Source: Rickettsiales bacterium (lineage in GTDB: Bacteria > Bacteroidota > Bacteroidia > Cytophagales > Cyclobacteriaceae). From it: a stretch of 64,000 nt of DNA. The stretch spans positions 76,192 through 140,191 of the forward strand of contig PBTY01000006.1 of assembly GCA_002729235.1 (NCBI GenBank), read 5' to 3'. The notes under the pieces were generated by a model. That model made no database searches, was not told the origin of the DNA, and saw nothing but the letters and a program-made list of their open reading frames with translations. Made by a program: the position numbers and the translations under genes. Of the stretch, positions 57,614-62,558 are shown piece after piece. Numbering within the stretch: the first letter of the stretch is position 1; the number at the start of each line of letters is the position of its first letter.

Positions 57614-58411
57614 ATGCGCTCGTTTAAATATCTCATTTTCCTACTAATTGTACAATTCGCATGTTCCGTAGAGCAGTCTTCCCAAGAAAAACCGCAAACA
57701 GAAGAACCTACAGAAAAGATCTTATCCAGCAATAGCATTCAAGCTGCCGAAATGATCAAGGTTGAGAAAAAAGCATCTTGTAATGAACCTCCCTGTACCA
57801 CGGTTTCGATTAGATATCCAAGGTTTGAGTCCATTCCAAACTTCAATAAAATAATTGAGGAAACAATTATAGAAACATTGAGTGAGGATTTCATTATGGA
57901 CGCTGACGGCTCCGAATCGATGGAGGAGCTCGAAAACATGTTCATTGCTTCATATGAAAATTTCGTTGCCAATTTCCCAGAATCAACGACACCATGGGAT
58001 CTTTCTATTTCGGTTCAGGTGAGTTACGCTTCCGAAAACTTTACCTCCTTTGAAATGGCTATTTCAAGTTATACAGGTGGTGCTCATCCAAATAGTAGCG
58101 TAACTTTTATAAATCTGAGTAAAGACAGCAAAAGACCACTCGAATTAAAATCAATCATAAAAAATGACAGAAAGTTGAGAAAGATAGCTGAAGAAGCTTT
58201 TCGCACGCATTATGAAATCCCAGAAGGATCTTCTTTTTCGGACTTTGGATTCACCTTTGATAATGACCAGTTTACCTTACCTCAGGCGATTGGCTTCAAT
58301 AAAGAAGGTCTGATCATCTACTACAATAGTTATGAGATCGCCTCCTATGCCAATGGTCCTACCGAAATAACCATTCCACTCAACAAACTTGAAGACTTAA
58401 TTAAAATTTAG
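57614..58411 (+). CDS. DUF4163/DUF3298 lipoprotein
   Basis: Lipobox FACS; AISSYTGGAHPNSSVTFINL. Confidence 0.85.
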   Translation: MRSFKYLIFLLIVQFACSVEQSSQEKPQTEEPTEKILSSNSIQAAEMIKVEKKASCNEPPCTTVSIRYPRFESIPNFNKIIEETIIETLSEDFIMDADGSESMEELENMFIASYENFVANFPESTTPWDLSISVQVSYASENFTSFEMAISSYTGGAHPNSSVTFINLSKDSKRPLELKSIIKNDRKLRKIAEEAFRTHYEIPEGSSFSDFGFTFDNDQFTLPQAIGFNKEGLIIYYNSYEIASYANGPTEITIPLNKLEDLIKI

Positions 58412-60096
58412 TCATAGGAGCAAACTCGAGCGTCCTCTTCTTTGATTAATCTTCTCAAAATTTTACCAACATTTGATTTTGGAAGTTCTTCAGAAAATGC
58501 CACGTGTTTAGGTCTTTTGTAACCAGTGAGATTATCCTTGCAATGATCGATGATTTCTTGCTCAGTTAAGGATTGATCCTTTTTAACGATATACACCTTG
58601 ACTGCCTCAGTGGACTTGCTATCTGGTACACCAATTGCTCCAACTTCTAATACTTTCGGGTGAGTAGCAATGGCATCCTCCACTTCATTGGGATAAACGT
58701 TAAACCCTGAGACAAGAATCATTTCTTTCTTACGATCCACGATTCGGAAATACCCATCGGGATCCATTGTTGCTATATCTCCCGTTTTGAAGTAACCATT
58801 AATGAAGCTACTCTCTGACTCTTCCTCACGTTGCCAGTAACCAGTAAAAACTTGTGGGCCCTTACAACACAACTCTCCTCTTTCCCCTTCCGCTACTTCA
58901 TTGCCTTCATCATCCAACAACTTCACGTCAGTATCTGGCAATGGCAATCCAATAGTACCCACTCTATTACCTTCAGACAAAGGGTTGATACATAAGCCTG
59001 GAGAAGTCTCGGTCAGACCATAAGCTTCCGCTATCCGTTTACCAGTGACCTTCTCCCATTTATCAAATACAGCACGCTGAAGAGCCATCCCCCCTGCCAG
59101 TGCTACTTTTATGGTACTATGATCCAATTCCGCAAATCCAGGAGTATTCAACAAACCATTGAATAATGTATTGACACCAGTGATAAGAGTATAAGGATGC
59201 TTCTTAAGTTCCTTTACAAACCCTTTCATGTCTCTAGGGTTAGTGATCAACACATTTTTCGCCCCTACTTTCGCAGGAAGTAAAGCATGTGCATTCAAAG
59301 CAAAAATATGATAAAGAGGAAGCGCTGCGATGAATATCTCCTTACCTTCCACAGGGTTGGCTTGCTTCAACCAGCATTCAATTTGTTGAAGGTTTCCAAT
59401 CAGGTTTCTGTGAGTGAGCATAGCACCTTTTGAAACACCAGTAGTTCCTCCTGTATATTGTAGAAAAGCTAAATCATTAGCATCAATTTTTGGAGCCGTG
59501 AAAGACTCAGATCTAGCCTCTTTTAAAATCTTCTTGAATGGAATGGCTTCTGGGAGACTATAAGCTGGAACCATCTTCTTGATTTTCTTCACCACAAAGC
59601 TGACCAAAGCACCTTTGACTCCTCCCAACATATCCCCTAGCTCAGTGATGATTACGTGATCTATGGAAGTATCCTTTATAATCTCTTCTAAGTTCGCAGC
59701 GAAGTTGGCTAATATAACTATTGCCTTTGCTCCAGAATCTTTGAACTGATGACGCATTTCGGAAGGAGTATACAGGGGATTGGTATTAACTACTACCAAA
59801 CCAGCCTTTAATGCCGCATACATCACTACTGGATTCTGAATAACATTTGGTAATTGTATCGCTATTTTATCACCGGGCTTCAATCCCAGGTCATTTTGAA
59901 AATAAGATGCAAACCGATCTGATAGCTCTCCCAATTCTTCGAAACTGATGATTTTACCCATATTTTCATAGGCAGGCAGGTCGCTATACTTGCTTCTTGA
60001 TTCTACAAATAACTCTGCAAGTGAACCATACTTATCAGCATCAATTGATTTGGGTACTCCAGCAGGGTAAGATTCTATCCAAGGTTTGTTGCTCAT
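58408..60096 (-). CDS. fadD: Long-chain fatty acid--CoA ligase
   Basis: QYTGGTTGVSKGAMLTHRNL, GYFKTGDIATMDPDGYFRIVDRKKEMI. Confidence 0.93.
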   Translation of the reverse strand: MSNKPWIESYPAGVPKSIDADKYGSLAELFVESRSKYSDLPAYENMGKIISFEELGELSDRFASYFQNDLGLKPGDKIAIQLPNVIQNPVVMYAALKAGLVVVNTNPLYTPSEMRHQFKDSGAKAIVILANFAANLEEIIKDTSIDHVIITELGDMLGGVKGALVSFVVKKIKKMVPAYSLPEAIPFKKILKEARSESFTAPKIDANDLAFLQYTGGTTGVSKGAMLTHRNLIGNLQQIECWLKQANPVEGKEIFIAALPLYHIFALNAHALLPAKVGAKNVLITNPRDMKGFVKELKKHPYTLITGVNTLFNGLLNTPGFAELDHSTIKVALAGGMALQRAVFDKWEKVTGKRIAEAYGLTETSPGLCINPLSEGNRVGTIGLPLPDTDVKLLDDEGNEVAEGERGELCCKGPQVFTGYWQREEESESSFINGYFKTGDIATMDPDGYFRIVDRKKEMILVSGFNVYPNEVEDAIATHPKVLEVGAIGVPDSKSTEAVKVYIVKKDQSLTEQEIIDHCKDNLTGYKRPKHVAFSEELPKSNVGKILRRLIKEEDARVCSYD

Positions 60097-60439: not shown

Positions 60440-60477
60440 TATAAAAAAGAATAGGTCGAGGCACCCCTACCTCGACC
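60440..60477 (-). terminator. Terminator of tRNA-like RNA copy A
   Basis: Minus strand GGTCGAGG-TAGGGGTG-CCTCGACC then TATTCTTTTTT. Confidence 0.8.
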
Positions 60478-60510
60478 AGATTCAAATAAACAACATTAAC
60501 CCAAAAATAG

Positions 60511-60662
60511 CTGTAGGAGAAGGATTCGAACCTCCACGAAGCAGTTAGTCCCGATGATTCACGATTAAATGCCGAAACATTTAATCGTGAAACACGCGGG
60601 ATTTATCCCTTATCTTCACCCCCGAGACAGGAGGGCATGTCTGCCAATTTCATCACCCTACA
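60511..60662 (-). ncRNA. tRNA-like structured RNA, copy A (giant variable domain)
   Basis: Minus strand: acceptor TGTAGGG/TCCTACA, D-arm ATG AAATTGGCAGA CAT, anticodon-like arm CCCTC-CTGTCTC-GGGGG, ~83 nt variable domain, T-arm GGAGG-TTCGAAT-CCTTC. Confidence 0.85.
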
Positions 60663-60669
60663 GTGTGTA

Positions 60670-60687
60670 AACGCATCGTTTTGCGTT
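60670..60687 (-). ncRNA. 5' leader hairpin of copy A
   Basis: AACGCA-AAACGA-TGCGTT on minus strand; counterpart in copy B with different sequence. Confidence 0.65.
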
Positions 60688-60699
60688 GTTTTGATGATT

Positions 60700-60707
60700 C
60701 AAAATTA
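60700..60707 (-). promoter_or_regulatory. Bacteroidetes-type -7 box (TAATTTTG) for copy A
   Basis: Matches TAnnTTTG; same context TTTTGAATCATCAAA as copy B. Confidence 0.6.
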
Positions 60708-61362
60708 CCACCAACTTTCAATCTTTAAAATTTTATTAACGCTTTTTGAAAAGATTTACATATTGGATCAAAATCGCTCTTTCAAATTTAAAATTTCACA
60801 ATTTACCCCCATTTAAATGCCTGAAATTAGATTTCATTTAATCGTCTCACACACAATTCCAACCAAAATTTGGCATTTCATGATTATGGGAGAATAAAAT
60901 TCTTTGATTTTGTTCAAAATATCCTTCAAAACATTGAACTAATAGCTTGTTTACATTTGATAATCACAACAGCATCATGTAACACAATTGTTCTGAATAC
61001 ATCATTAGATTCCGAGGCATACAATCTCGGAACCTTGGCTTAACACCCACATATGAAGAGTACATTATGAGCAACACCGAAGAATGAAACAATAAGTGAA
61101 CAAGCAACAAGGTTCGTCATTCCAGGTTGCATACATTAATAAAAGATGGCCTAGACAGTCAAACAGTGGAAAACAATGAGTTACCAATGACACTCGGTGC
61201 CTCTAATAAAACATATTAAAAGAGGGAGGTTAAACAATCAAACTTTAGCCCAATAAAAAGAGAAGATGAAGGAACGCCTAGTTTGGGCCACATAGCCTGG
61301 CAACCAAGGTGCCTTTTCGTGGTTGTAATAAGATTATCATGAAAATCAGAAAGTTCATGATG

Positions 61363-61600
61363 CCTAAAAAAAGAAAAAGGTCGGGGACGCCTAATCTGGA
61401 GCGTGTAGTTGAGGGACGCCTAGACAGGCACCTATTCACCGTATTGTCCTACTTCGACCAGACCTAGCCGGTCGCATTCAATAAACAACATTAACCCTAT
61501 CGAAAAGAGTTGTTAAATCAGGCACAAAAAAATCATGGCTGTAAGGGAAAGAATCAATCCTTCACGGAACAGTGATAATCGGATGAATACTAATAAGGTG
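61363..61600 (-). pseudogene. Decayed third tRNA-like unit (terminator/spacer/3' half remnants)
   Basis: ttcaataaacaacattaaccc and atggctgtaaggga..acggaacagt..atcgg match copy B, but the T-loop is destroyed and the hairpin is interrupted. Confidence 0.65.
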
Positions 61601-61728
61601 AAAAGAAGTACTAACAAGAAGGCTTTGATGTGAGGAATTTCAACAGATCGTAACTGAGTTTAAAAATGAGTCAAAACATACCCAACTATCATACTTCCAT
61701 TAAGACCTACTGGTTAAACTTGATGCCT

Positions 61729-61765
61729 ATAAAAAGAAAAAGGTCGAGGCACCCCTACCTCGACC
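61729..61765 (-). terminator. Terminator of tRNA-like RNA copy B
   Basis: Minus strand GGTCGAGG-TAGGGGTG-CCTCGACC TTTTTCTTTTT. Confidence 0.88.
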
Positions 61766-61797
61766 AGATTCAATAAACAACATTAACCCAAAAATGA

Positions 61798-61943
61798 TGG
61801 CTGTAAGGGAAGGATTCGAACCTCCACGGAGCAGTTAGTCTCGCCACGATAAATTACCGGAGTAATTTATCGTGATCAGAGATTTATCCCTTATCTCCAC
61901 CCCCGAGACAGGAGGGCATGTCTGCCAATTTCATCACCTTACA
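61798..61943 (-). ncRNA. tRNA-like structured RNA, copy B (giant variable domain, encoded CCA)
   Basis: Minus strand: acceptor TGTAAGG/CCTTACA, discriminator G, CCA; same D, anticodon-like and T arms as copy A. Confidence 0.87.
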
Positions 61944-61948
61944 GTGTG

Positions 61949-61967
61949 ATCGCAACTGCTTTGCGAT
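61949..61967 (-). ncRNA. 5' leader hairpin of copy B
   Basis: Minus strand ATCGCAA-AGCAG-TTGCGAT. Confidence 0.65.
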
Positions 61968-61979
61968 TGTTTGATGATT

Positions 61980-61987
61980 CAAAAGTA
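61980..61987 (-). promoter_or_regulatory. Bacteroidetes-type -7 box (TACTTTTG) for copy B
   Basis: Matches TAnnTTTG at equivalent position to copy A. Confidence 0.6.
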
Positions 61988-62096
61988 ATAGACTTCTGAT
62001 ATTTTTAAAAATATTTTAATAAATTTGGTAAATATTTAGATGTCATTTAAAATTGAATGTATAATATTGCATTATTAGAAAATAGCACTTTTTGAG

Positions 62097-62558
62097 ATGA
62101 GTAAAAATTACGAAATTGACAATGTAGACCTCAAAATCCTCAATTTATTGATGGAAGACGCCAAAATTCCATACACTGAGGTAGCTAAAAAGGTCTTTGT
62201 TTCGGGTGGTACCGTCCACGTAAGAATGAAGAAGCTTGAAGAAATGGGAGTCGTAAGAGGAACCACTCTTCAAATGGATTACTCAAAGCTTGGATATGAT
62301 GTAACATGCTTTATGGGAATCTACCTTCAAAAGTCTTCTTTATATGATAGTGTGGTTGAGCAACTCAAAGACATTCCTGAAATCGTTAAGGTTCACTACA
62401 CAACTGGTAACTATAACATTTTCATTAAAATACATTGTAGAGATACAAAACACCTGAAGGATGTACTTCATGACAAAATCCAGAAGGTAGAAGGTATTGA
62501 AAGAACTGAGACATTCATCTCGTTAGAAGAAAGTCTAAACAGACATCTCAAGTTCTGA
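62097..62558 (+). CDS. Lrp/AsnC family transcriptional regulator
   Basis: VDLKILNLLMEDAKIPYTEVAKKVFVSGGTVHVRMKKLEEMGVV. Confidence 0.93.
   Translation: MSKNYEIDNVDLKILNLLMEDAKIPYTEVAKKVFVSGGTVHVRMKKLEEMGVVRGTTLQMDYSKLGYDVTCFMGIYLQKSSLYDSVVEQLKDIPEIVKVHYTTGNYNIFIKIHCRDTKHLKDVLHDKIQKVEGIERTETFISLEESLNRHLKF

What the first reader, a model, noticed from the sequence alone, without database searches (positions are those of the whole stretch)
60440..61990. Tandem tRNA-like RNAs with a giant, covarying variable domain: candidate undescribed structured ncRNA family
Two minus-strand elements (60511-60662 and 61798-61943) have a full tRNA frame: 7-bp acceptor, G18G19-type D-loop, 7-nt anticodon-like loop, canonical GG-TTCGAAT-CC T-arm. 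An ~80-nt structured domain sits in the variable-loop position; ordinary type II variable arms are far shorter. Compensatory changes between copies: acceptor G5-C68 to A5-T68; V-base stem GAAG/CTTC to GGAG/CTCC; middle stem TCCC/GGGA to TCTC/GAGA; distal stem TTCACGATTAAATG/CATTTAATCGTGAA versus CACGATAAATTAC/GTAATTTATCGTG; leader hairpin AACGCA/TGCGTT versus ATCGCAA/TTGCGAT. Internal loops AUAAGGGAUAAAUC and GACUAACUGC, plus the D and anticodon-like arms, are identical. Both distal stems end in UNCG tetraloops. The pattern is rigid conserved loops with covarying stems, expected for a functional RNA. I do not recognise it as tmRNA, tRNA-Sec or a standard tRNA-Leu/Ser/Tyr. Whether it is truly unreported cannot be decided here.
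Basis: partly seen in the sequence, partly recalled or inferred. Interest (0 to 1): 0.93.

Follow-up and report, generated by a model that had tools for sequence, protein, structure and literature searches.

The report
Bacterial tRNA-like RNA, giant variable arm
Two neighbouring genes make an RNA that folds like a transfer RNA but carries a large extra structured arm; it belongs to a widespread family in Bacteroidota and their phages that Rfam does not contain and that seems built to be charged with an amino acid but not to read codons.

Summary
Both minus-strand elements (60508-60662, 61798-61943) are complete tRNA bodies with a 71-80-nt structured variable arm. Rfam 15 and ARAGORN do not recognise them. 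A covariance model built from the two copies finds the family (E<1e-13) in 105 of 148 genomes of the order. It also occurs in Chitinophagales and Saprospirales, and in 108 IMG/VR viral contigs, several with it inside large phage tRNA clusters. Tree-aware covariation gives 11 significant pairs, all in the proposed structure. In 125 distinct sequences collected without fixing the anticodon loop, the tRNA tertiary core, U1-A72, G2-C71, U35, C36, C38 and G73 are invariant, whereas U33 and a purine at 37, both needed for decoding, are not kept. In 78 of 125 loci the neighbour is the same divergent Lrp/AsnC-type regulator. Best reading: a stable, tRNA-processed, non-decoding RNA, probably aminoacylated (aspartate best supported), with the variable arm as a protein-docking domain. 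Family, fold and distribution are shown; charging and function are inferred. New variant of a known kind (tRNA-derived RNA), not found in Rfam or in the papers searched.

The parts
60508..60662 (-). tRNA-like RNA copy A (U1 = 60662, G73 = 60511, then CTA); variable arm GAAG...CTTC 60617-60538
   Evidence: covariance model family
61798..61943 (-). tRNA-like RNA copy B (U1 = 61943, G73 = 61801, then CCA)
60663..60705 (-). leader of copy A with TAATTTTG (-7 type) box and AACGCA/TGCGTT hairpin
   Evidence: sequence; box enrichment across family
61944..61988 (-). leader of copy B with TACTTTTG box and ATCGCAA/TTGCGAT hairpin
   Evidence: sequence
60440..60480 (-). terminator-like hairpin GGTCGAGG...CCTCGACC plus T-rich tail after copy A
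   Evidence: sequence; folds
61725..61768 (-). same terminator-like hairpin after copy B
   Evidence: sequence
61535..61573 (-). decayed 3' remnant of a third copy
   Evidence: 85% identity over 39 nt
62097..62558 (+). divergent Lrp/AsnC-family regulator, the conserved neighbour (78 of 125 loci)
   Evidence: Pfam; synteny
58408..60096 (-). downstream acyl-CoA ligase-type gene (AMP-binding), same strand in 17 loci

Best explanation
A conserved, stable, tRNA-derived but non-decoding RNA. It is transcribed from its own promoter, often as a tandem array, and its ends are cut and CCA-finished like a tRNA (inferred). It folds into a standard tRNA L shape with a normal 12-bp acceptor/T stack. Because the anticodon loop keeps the letters a synthetase reads (U35, C36, C38, mostly G34, plus G73 and G2-C71) but not those the ribosome needs (U33, purine 37), the likeliest job is to be aminoacylated without entering normal elongation. 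Aspartyl-tRNA synthetase is the best candidate: the loop CUGUCUC differs from the host tRNA-Asp loop CUGUCAC only at position 37. The invariant U1-A72 pair is the one read by GatCAB, so Asp could even be amidated to Asn on the RNA. The variable arm, with its conserved AYAAA/CUAA internal loop, is read as a docking site for a partner protein that sets the RNA apart from true tRNAs. Its tie to an Lrp/AsnC-type amino-acid regulator suggests a role in amino-acid sensing or supply; phages carry it among their translation RNAs. Shown: family, fold, covariation, synteny, phage carriage, conservation pattern. Inferred: processing, charging, partner, function.
For: Tertiary-core positions U8, A14, A15, G18, G19, A21, U48, T54, T55, C56, A58 all 125/125. 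U1-A72, G2-C71, U35, C36, C38, G73 125/125, while U33 is 98/125 and position 37 is U115 C9 G1. Covariation: 11 of 11 significant pairs in the structure; helices 98-100% paired. Published Asp determinants G73, G34, U35, C36, C38 (PMC9976931); host tRNA-Asp loop CUGUCAC. GatCAB reads U1-A72 (PMC4206432); gatB present beside asnS and glnS in the own genome. Promoter box in 79 of 130 loci against 10.6 expected; short spacers in arrays. Phage copies inside clusters of 14-26 tRNAs.
Against: G34 is kept in only 97 of 125 (A14 C8 U6). Bacterial tRNA-Asp has G1-C72, here U1-A72. A long variable arm may not fit a class II synthetase such as AspRS. The D arm resembles tRNA-Leu, and G73 with a long arm also fits SerRS. 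GatCAB is also present in relatives without the RNA (G025, G026, G030). No expression or charging data exist here.
Confidence: 0.4

Rival explanations
1. Same non-decoding tRNA relative, but charged with serine by SerRS, which ignores the anticodon and reads G73 and a long variable arm.
For: G73 in 125/125 and a long V arm in every member; literature on SerRS recognition of class II tRNAs (PMC7609411); phage copies often lie beside tRNA-Ser.
Against: Does not explain invariant U35, C36, C38 and the near-invariant anticodon stem; D arm is Leu-like, not Ser-like; U1-A72 unlike host tRNA-Ser.
Confidence: 0.15
2. A tRNA-shaped regulatory RNA that works uncharged, for example by binding the neighbouring Lrp/AsnC-type protein or a synthetase and so reporting amino-acid status.
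For: Divergent Lrp-type gene in 78 of 125 loci across Cytophagales and Chitinophagales. Shared phased A/T promoter architecture and a TTGnAWnnnWTnCAA palindrome upstream whether or not the regulator is adjacent (22 of 129 upstream regions against 0.85% of background windows).
Against: Phage contigs carry the RNA with no Lrp homologue in the fetched DNA. The acceptor end is fully conserved, which an uncharged regulator need not keep.
Confidence: 0.15
3. A decoy or spare part in the conflict with tRNA-cutting enzymes: host and phage copies absorb or replace targets of anticodon nucleases.
For: Present in phage tRNA clusters; one carrier phage encodes a T4-like RNA ligase; near-invariant anticodon arm.
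Against: In hosts it is near-core in a whole order with fixed synteny to a regulator and suf genes, not in defence islands; a decoy does not need the conserved V-arm core.
Confidence: 0.12
4. An odd but working elongator tRNA for Asp codons (anticodon GUC) with a giant variable arm.
For: Commonest loop CUGUCUC has anticodon GUC; intact cloverleaf.
Against: Position 37 is never A and almost always U; U33 is lost in 27 of 125; position 34 varies to A, C, U; an ordinary tRNA-Asp is present.
Confidence: 0.07
5. Decayed tRNA genes or a tRNA with an intron in the variable loop.
For: A truly decayed copy lies between the two; archaeal tRNAs can have introns outside the anticodon loop (general knowledge).
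Against: Stems covary over more than 100 genomes; the V base stem and AYAAA/CUAA core are conserved; an anticodon loop without U33 and purine 37 would remain after splicing.
Confidence: 0.02

Closest known systems
Class II tRNAs (tRNA-Leu, tRNA-Ser)
   Same: cloverleaf, Leu-type D arm (GAAATTGGCAGAC against GGAATTGGTAGAC), variable arm closed by a stem next to the T arm
   Different: variable arm about 36-120 nt with its own conserved internal loop; G73 not A73 (Leu); anticodon loop without purine 37
tRNA-Asp
   Same: loop CUGUC-C, G73, G2-C71, U35, C36, C38
   Different: position 37 U instead of A, U1-A72 instead of G1-C72, Leu-like D arm, giant variable arm, GUC not universal
tRNA-Sec, selC* tRNA-Cys and allo-tRNAs
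   Same: long variable arm, G73 (tRNA-Sec), unusual tRNA
   Different: acceptor 7 bp and T stem 5 bp (12 bp in all, not 13), 5-bp anticodon stem, no UCA anticodon
tmRNA
   Same: tRNA-derived stable RNA, tRNA-type acceptor and T arm, also carried by the same phages
   Different: keeps D stem and anticodon arm, no tag reading frame, no pseudoknots recognised, no match to RF00023
YrlA-type bacterial Y RNAs (tRNA-mimic module; from general knowledge)
   Same: tRNA mimicry in a non-coding RNA
   Different: YrlA forms part of a Ro (TROVE) RNP; no Rfam family of that kind matches here; no Ro gene was looked for

Membership tests
tRNA (elongator) | 7-bp acceptor, D, anticodon and T arms with the tertiary core (U8-A14, G18/G19 with T55/C56, T54-A58) | tested here: met
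   core positions 125/125
tRNA (elongator) | decoding loop: U33 and purine at 37 | tested here: not met
   U33 98/125; position 37 U115 C9 G1
tRNA (elongator) | recognised by tRNA models (RF00005, ARAGORN) | tested here: not met
   the 67 RF00005 hits of the own genome do not include it
aspartate-accepting tRNA | determinants G73, G34, U35, C36, C38 | tested here: inconclusive
   four of five invariant, G34 97/125; charging not testable here
serine-accepting tRNA | G73 plus long variable arm; charged by SerRS | tested here: inconclusive
   both sequence features met; charging not testable here
tRNA-Sec / allo-tRNA | 13-bp acceptor domain or lengthened acceptor and anticodon stems | tested here: not met
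   7 + 5 bp acceptor domain, 5-bp anticodon stem
tmRNA | match to RF00023 or ARAGORN tmRNA, tag reading frame | tested here: not met
   tmRNA found next to it in a phage, but not the RNA itself
any Rfam 15 family | score at or above gathering cut-off | tested here: not met
   window; nine loci with members from other genomes and phages
GatCAB substrate | U1-A72 pair and a mischarged Asp or Glu | tested here: inconclusive
   U1-A72 125/125, gatB present; charging and amidation not testable here
YrlA / Y RNA | binding by a Ro protein | not tested
   no Ro gene search was made; no Rfam match

The most novel reading that the evidence does not exclude
A new class of non-decoding, aminoacylated carrier RNA: AspRS charges it, GatCAB amidates it through U1-A72, and the product serves asparagine supply or sensing next to an Lrp/AsnC-type regulator, outside the ribosome, with phages bringing their own copy.
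Probability: 0.15. Interest if true: 0.97.

Novelty: new variant of a known kind. Interest (0 to 1): 0.87.

Why it matters
A structured RNA found in about 70% of sampled genomes of one bacterial order, in sister orders and in phages is absent from Rfam and is missed by a tRNA finder, probably because its variable arm is too long. It is a tRNA body in which synthetase-type determinants are frozen while decoding determinants are relaxed, so it offers a clean natural test of what tRNAs do outside the ribosome. Its presence in phage tRNA clusters gives a second, independent system in which to find its function.

Tried and rejected
(1) Rfam at relaxed E-value: only chance-level hits. (2) Intron in a tRNA: rejected, because the V base stem and inner core are conserved and covary, and the anticodon loop would still be non-decoding. 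(3) Pseudogene pair: rejected by covariation and distribution; only the 61535-61573 remnant is decayed. (4) 'Identical internal loops' as evidence by themselves: they stay identical only in close relatives; across the family the core is AYAAA / CUAA with a covarying flanking 2-bp stem. (5) First prevalence count of 120/148 corrected to 105/148, because hits near 85 nt with E>1e-11 look like ordinary class II tRNAs. (6) Conservation counts from pattern-fetched sequences were biased by the pattern and regex; anticodon-loop claims rest on the model-fetched set. (7) Lrp relatives in Flavobacteriaceae-like genomes, and one of family f16, have no such RNA upstream, so the RNA is clade-specific. (8) INPHARED phages and PLSDB plasmids: no match. 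(9) Literature searches found no report of this RNA; the library lacks most subscription journals. (10) Palindromes after the GGUUGACCAC hairpin in phage copies are enriched (24 of 30 at 6 nt or more, shuffle mean 8) but not in hosts, so they are not part of the core explanation. (11) Laying the whole genome in the Python box was not available.

Full report
What is there. The two elements lie on the minus strand. Copy A is 60662 down to 60508 and copy B is 61943 down to 61798. Reading from U1, each has acceptor TGTARGG, U8 G9, D stem ATG/CAT with loop AAATTGGCAGA, G26, anticodon stem CCCTC/GGGGG with loop CTGTCTC, a long variable arm (80 and 71 nt), T arm GGAGG-TTCGAAT-CCTTC, acceptor 3' strand YCYTACA, then G73. 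Copy B is followed by CCA, copy A by CTA. Both are preceded by a TAnnTTTG box and followed by a GGTCGAGG...CCTCGACC hairpin with a T-rich tail. A 39-nt remnant of a third copy lies at 61535-61573. ARAGORN finds no gene. Rfam 15 has no match at gathering score, and only chance-level ones at E<10.

A real family. A covariance model made from only these two copies found all 30 test relatives at E<=1e-17. In a sample of the order, 105 of 148 genomes have a hit below 1e-13, with up to six tandem copies. I give 105 rather than the printed 120 because weaker hits of about 85 nt look like ordinary class II tRNAs, as became clear. In a phylum sample 15 of 159 genomes have it, all in the window's own class. 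176 unique sequences were parsed.

Structure test. In a tree-aware test (own script: FastTree tree, independent column evolution as null, APC-corrected G statistic, 142 sequences) 11 column pairs reach E<0.05. All 11 belong to the proposed structure: acceptor, D, V base, a 2-bp stem beyond the V base, the first pair of the distal stem, and T. On the model-fetched alignment A3 (125 distinct) the acceptor, D, anticodon, V-base and T helices are 98-100% paired. The covariation score is 0.230, against 0.111 in shuffles and 0.05-0.10 when partners are slid. A3 is fitted to the model, so this count leans towards it; the parsed set, with stems at fixed positions, agrees, although its parser required most acceptor, T and V-base pairs to form.

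Anatomy of the variable arm. The base stem (4 bp) covaries freely. Then come a spacer, a covarying 2-bp stem, an internal loop AYAAA / CUAA, and a distal stem. The distal part is interchangeable: a plain hairpin in the window's genus, a very short hairpin in others (for example L005, L027), or a multi-branch domain with a conserved hairpin GG-UNGA-CC plus a bulged A (motif in 99 of 227 sequences; 35 of 44 phage ones). Arm length runs from about 36 to 120 nt.

Transcription and processing (inferred from sequence). TAnnTTTG occurs within 100 nt upstream of the first copy in 79 of 130 loci, against 10.6 expected. Aligned on that box, the upstream region shows phased A/T tracts and a -33 TTTG-like element. 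GTTCTT, boxA-like, is in 22 of 130 leaders against 1.5 expected, and terminator-like hairpins follow 43 of 131 arrays against 1-3 in shuffles. Tandem copies are often only 12-111 nt apart, and CCA is encoded in a minority, so tRNA-style end processing and CCA addition are the natural reading.

Decoding or not. In A3, which was not selected on the anticodon loop, the tertiary core of a tRNA is invariant. So are U1-A72, G2-C71, U35, C36, C38 and G73. U33 is kept in 98 of 125, position 37 is U115 C9 G1, and position 34 is G97 A14 C8 U6. A decoding tRNA keeps U33 and a purine at 37; this RNA does not. The published aspartate determinants are G73, G34, U35, C36 and C38 (PMC9976931), and the host tRNA-Asp loop is CUGUCAC against CUGUCUC here. 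U1-A72 is the pair by which bacterial GatCAB knows its substrates (PMC4206432). The own genome has GatB together with AsnRS and GlnRS. This makes aspartylation, and possibly amidation, the best-supported guess, but G34 is not universal, G1-C72 of normal tRNA-Asp is missing, and nothing was measured.

Neighbourhood. In 78 of 125 loci the gene immediately upstream, divergent, is the same Lrp/AsnC-family protein (window 62097-62558; Pfam), in 25 loci followed by a gene that I read as sufB from its sequence. Arrays not next to it share the same upstream architecture. Lrp relatives in other families of the class lack the RNA.

Phages. The same pattern hits 108 IMG/VR contigs, and the model confirms the 80 fetched for that search. 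None of these has an Lrp homologue in the fetched DNA. Several lie in clusters of up to 26 tRNAs, two of nine scanned contigs also with a tmRNA, often beside a tRNA-Ser. Carrying contigs encode a portal protein, a T4-like RNA ligase/tail-fibre protein and a primase-like protein. Phages keeping it among translation RNAs argues that it acts in or near the translation apparatus.

Verdict. It is a widespread RNA family with the body of a tRNA, not found in Rfam or in the papers searched. What it does is not settled; the leading reading is a charged, non-decoding tRNA relative.

Noticed in passing
L248:6933-7342 (viral contig IMGVR_UViG_3300047553_000511): The phage contig that carries this RNA, a tmRNA and 25 tRNAs also carries a GOLLD RNA (RF02032, 268 bits), another giant RNA known from phage tRNA clusters.
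   Followed up: no
window 61300-61600, minus strand: Besides the 39-nt remnant of a third copy, leader-like and terminator-like fragments (GTTAATGTTGTTTATTGAA, GGTCTGGTCGAAGTAGG) lie between the two copies: a decayed tandem repeat.
   Followed up: partly
phage copies, e.g. L229, L252, L254: Directly after the GGUUGACCAC hairpin, phage copies carry perfect palindromes of 6-10 nt (GCGCGC, GCATGC, TTGTGCACAA, GCCGGCCGGC), 24 of 30 against 8 expected from shuffles; they could allow RNA dimers by kissing. Host copies do not show this.
   Followed up: partly
upstream of arrays: Phased A/T tracts about 21 bp apart and a TTGnAWnnnWTnCAA palindrome at the -33 region in arrays both near to and far from the Lrp gene: a candidate operator.
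   Followed up: partly
own genome contigs C37 and C110 (L353, L354): A+T-rich tRNA sets that repeat isotypes found elsewhere and look organelle-like; possibly contamination (the assembly is listed at 4.64%).
   Followed up: no
L040, L042: Some tandem copies carry a large insertion between the V base stem and the conserved internal loop, as do copies in L019 and L023.
   Followed up: no
L145 (Phaeodactylibacter xiamenensis): Five near-identical copies about 151 nt apart with a variant V arm lacking the AYAAA/CUAA core.
   Followed up: no
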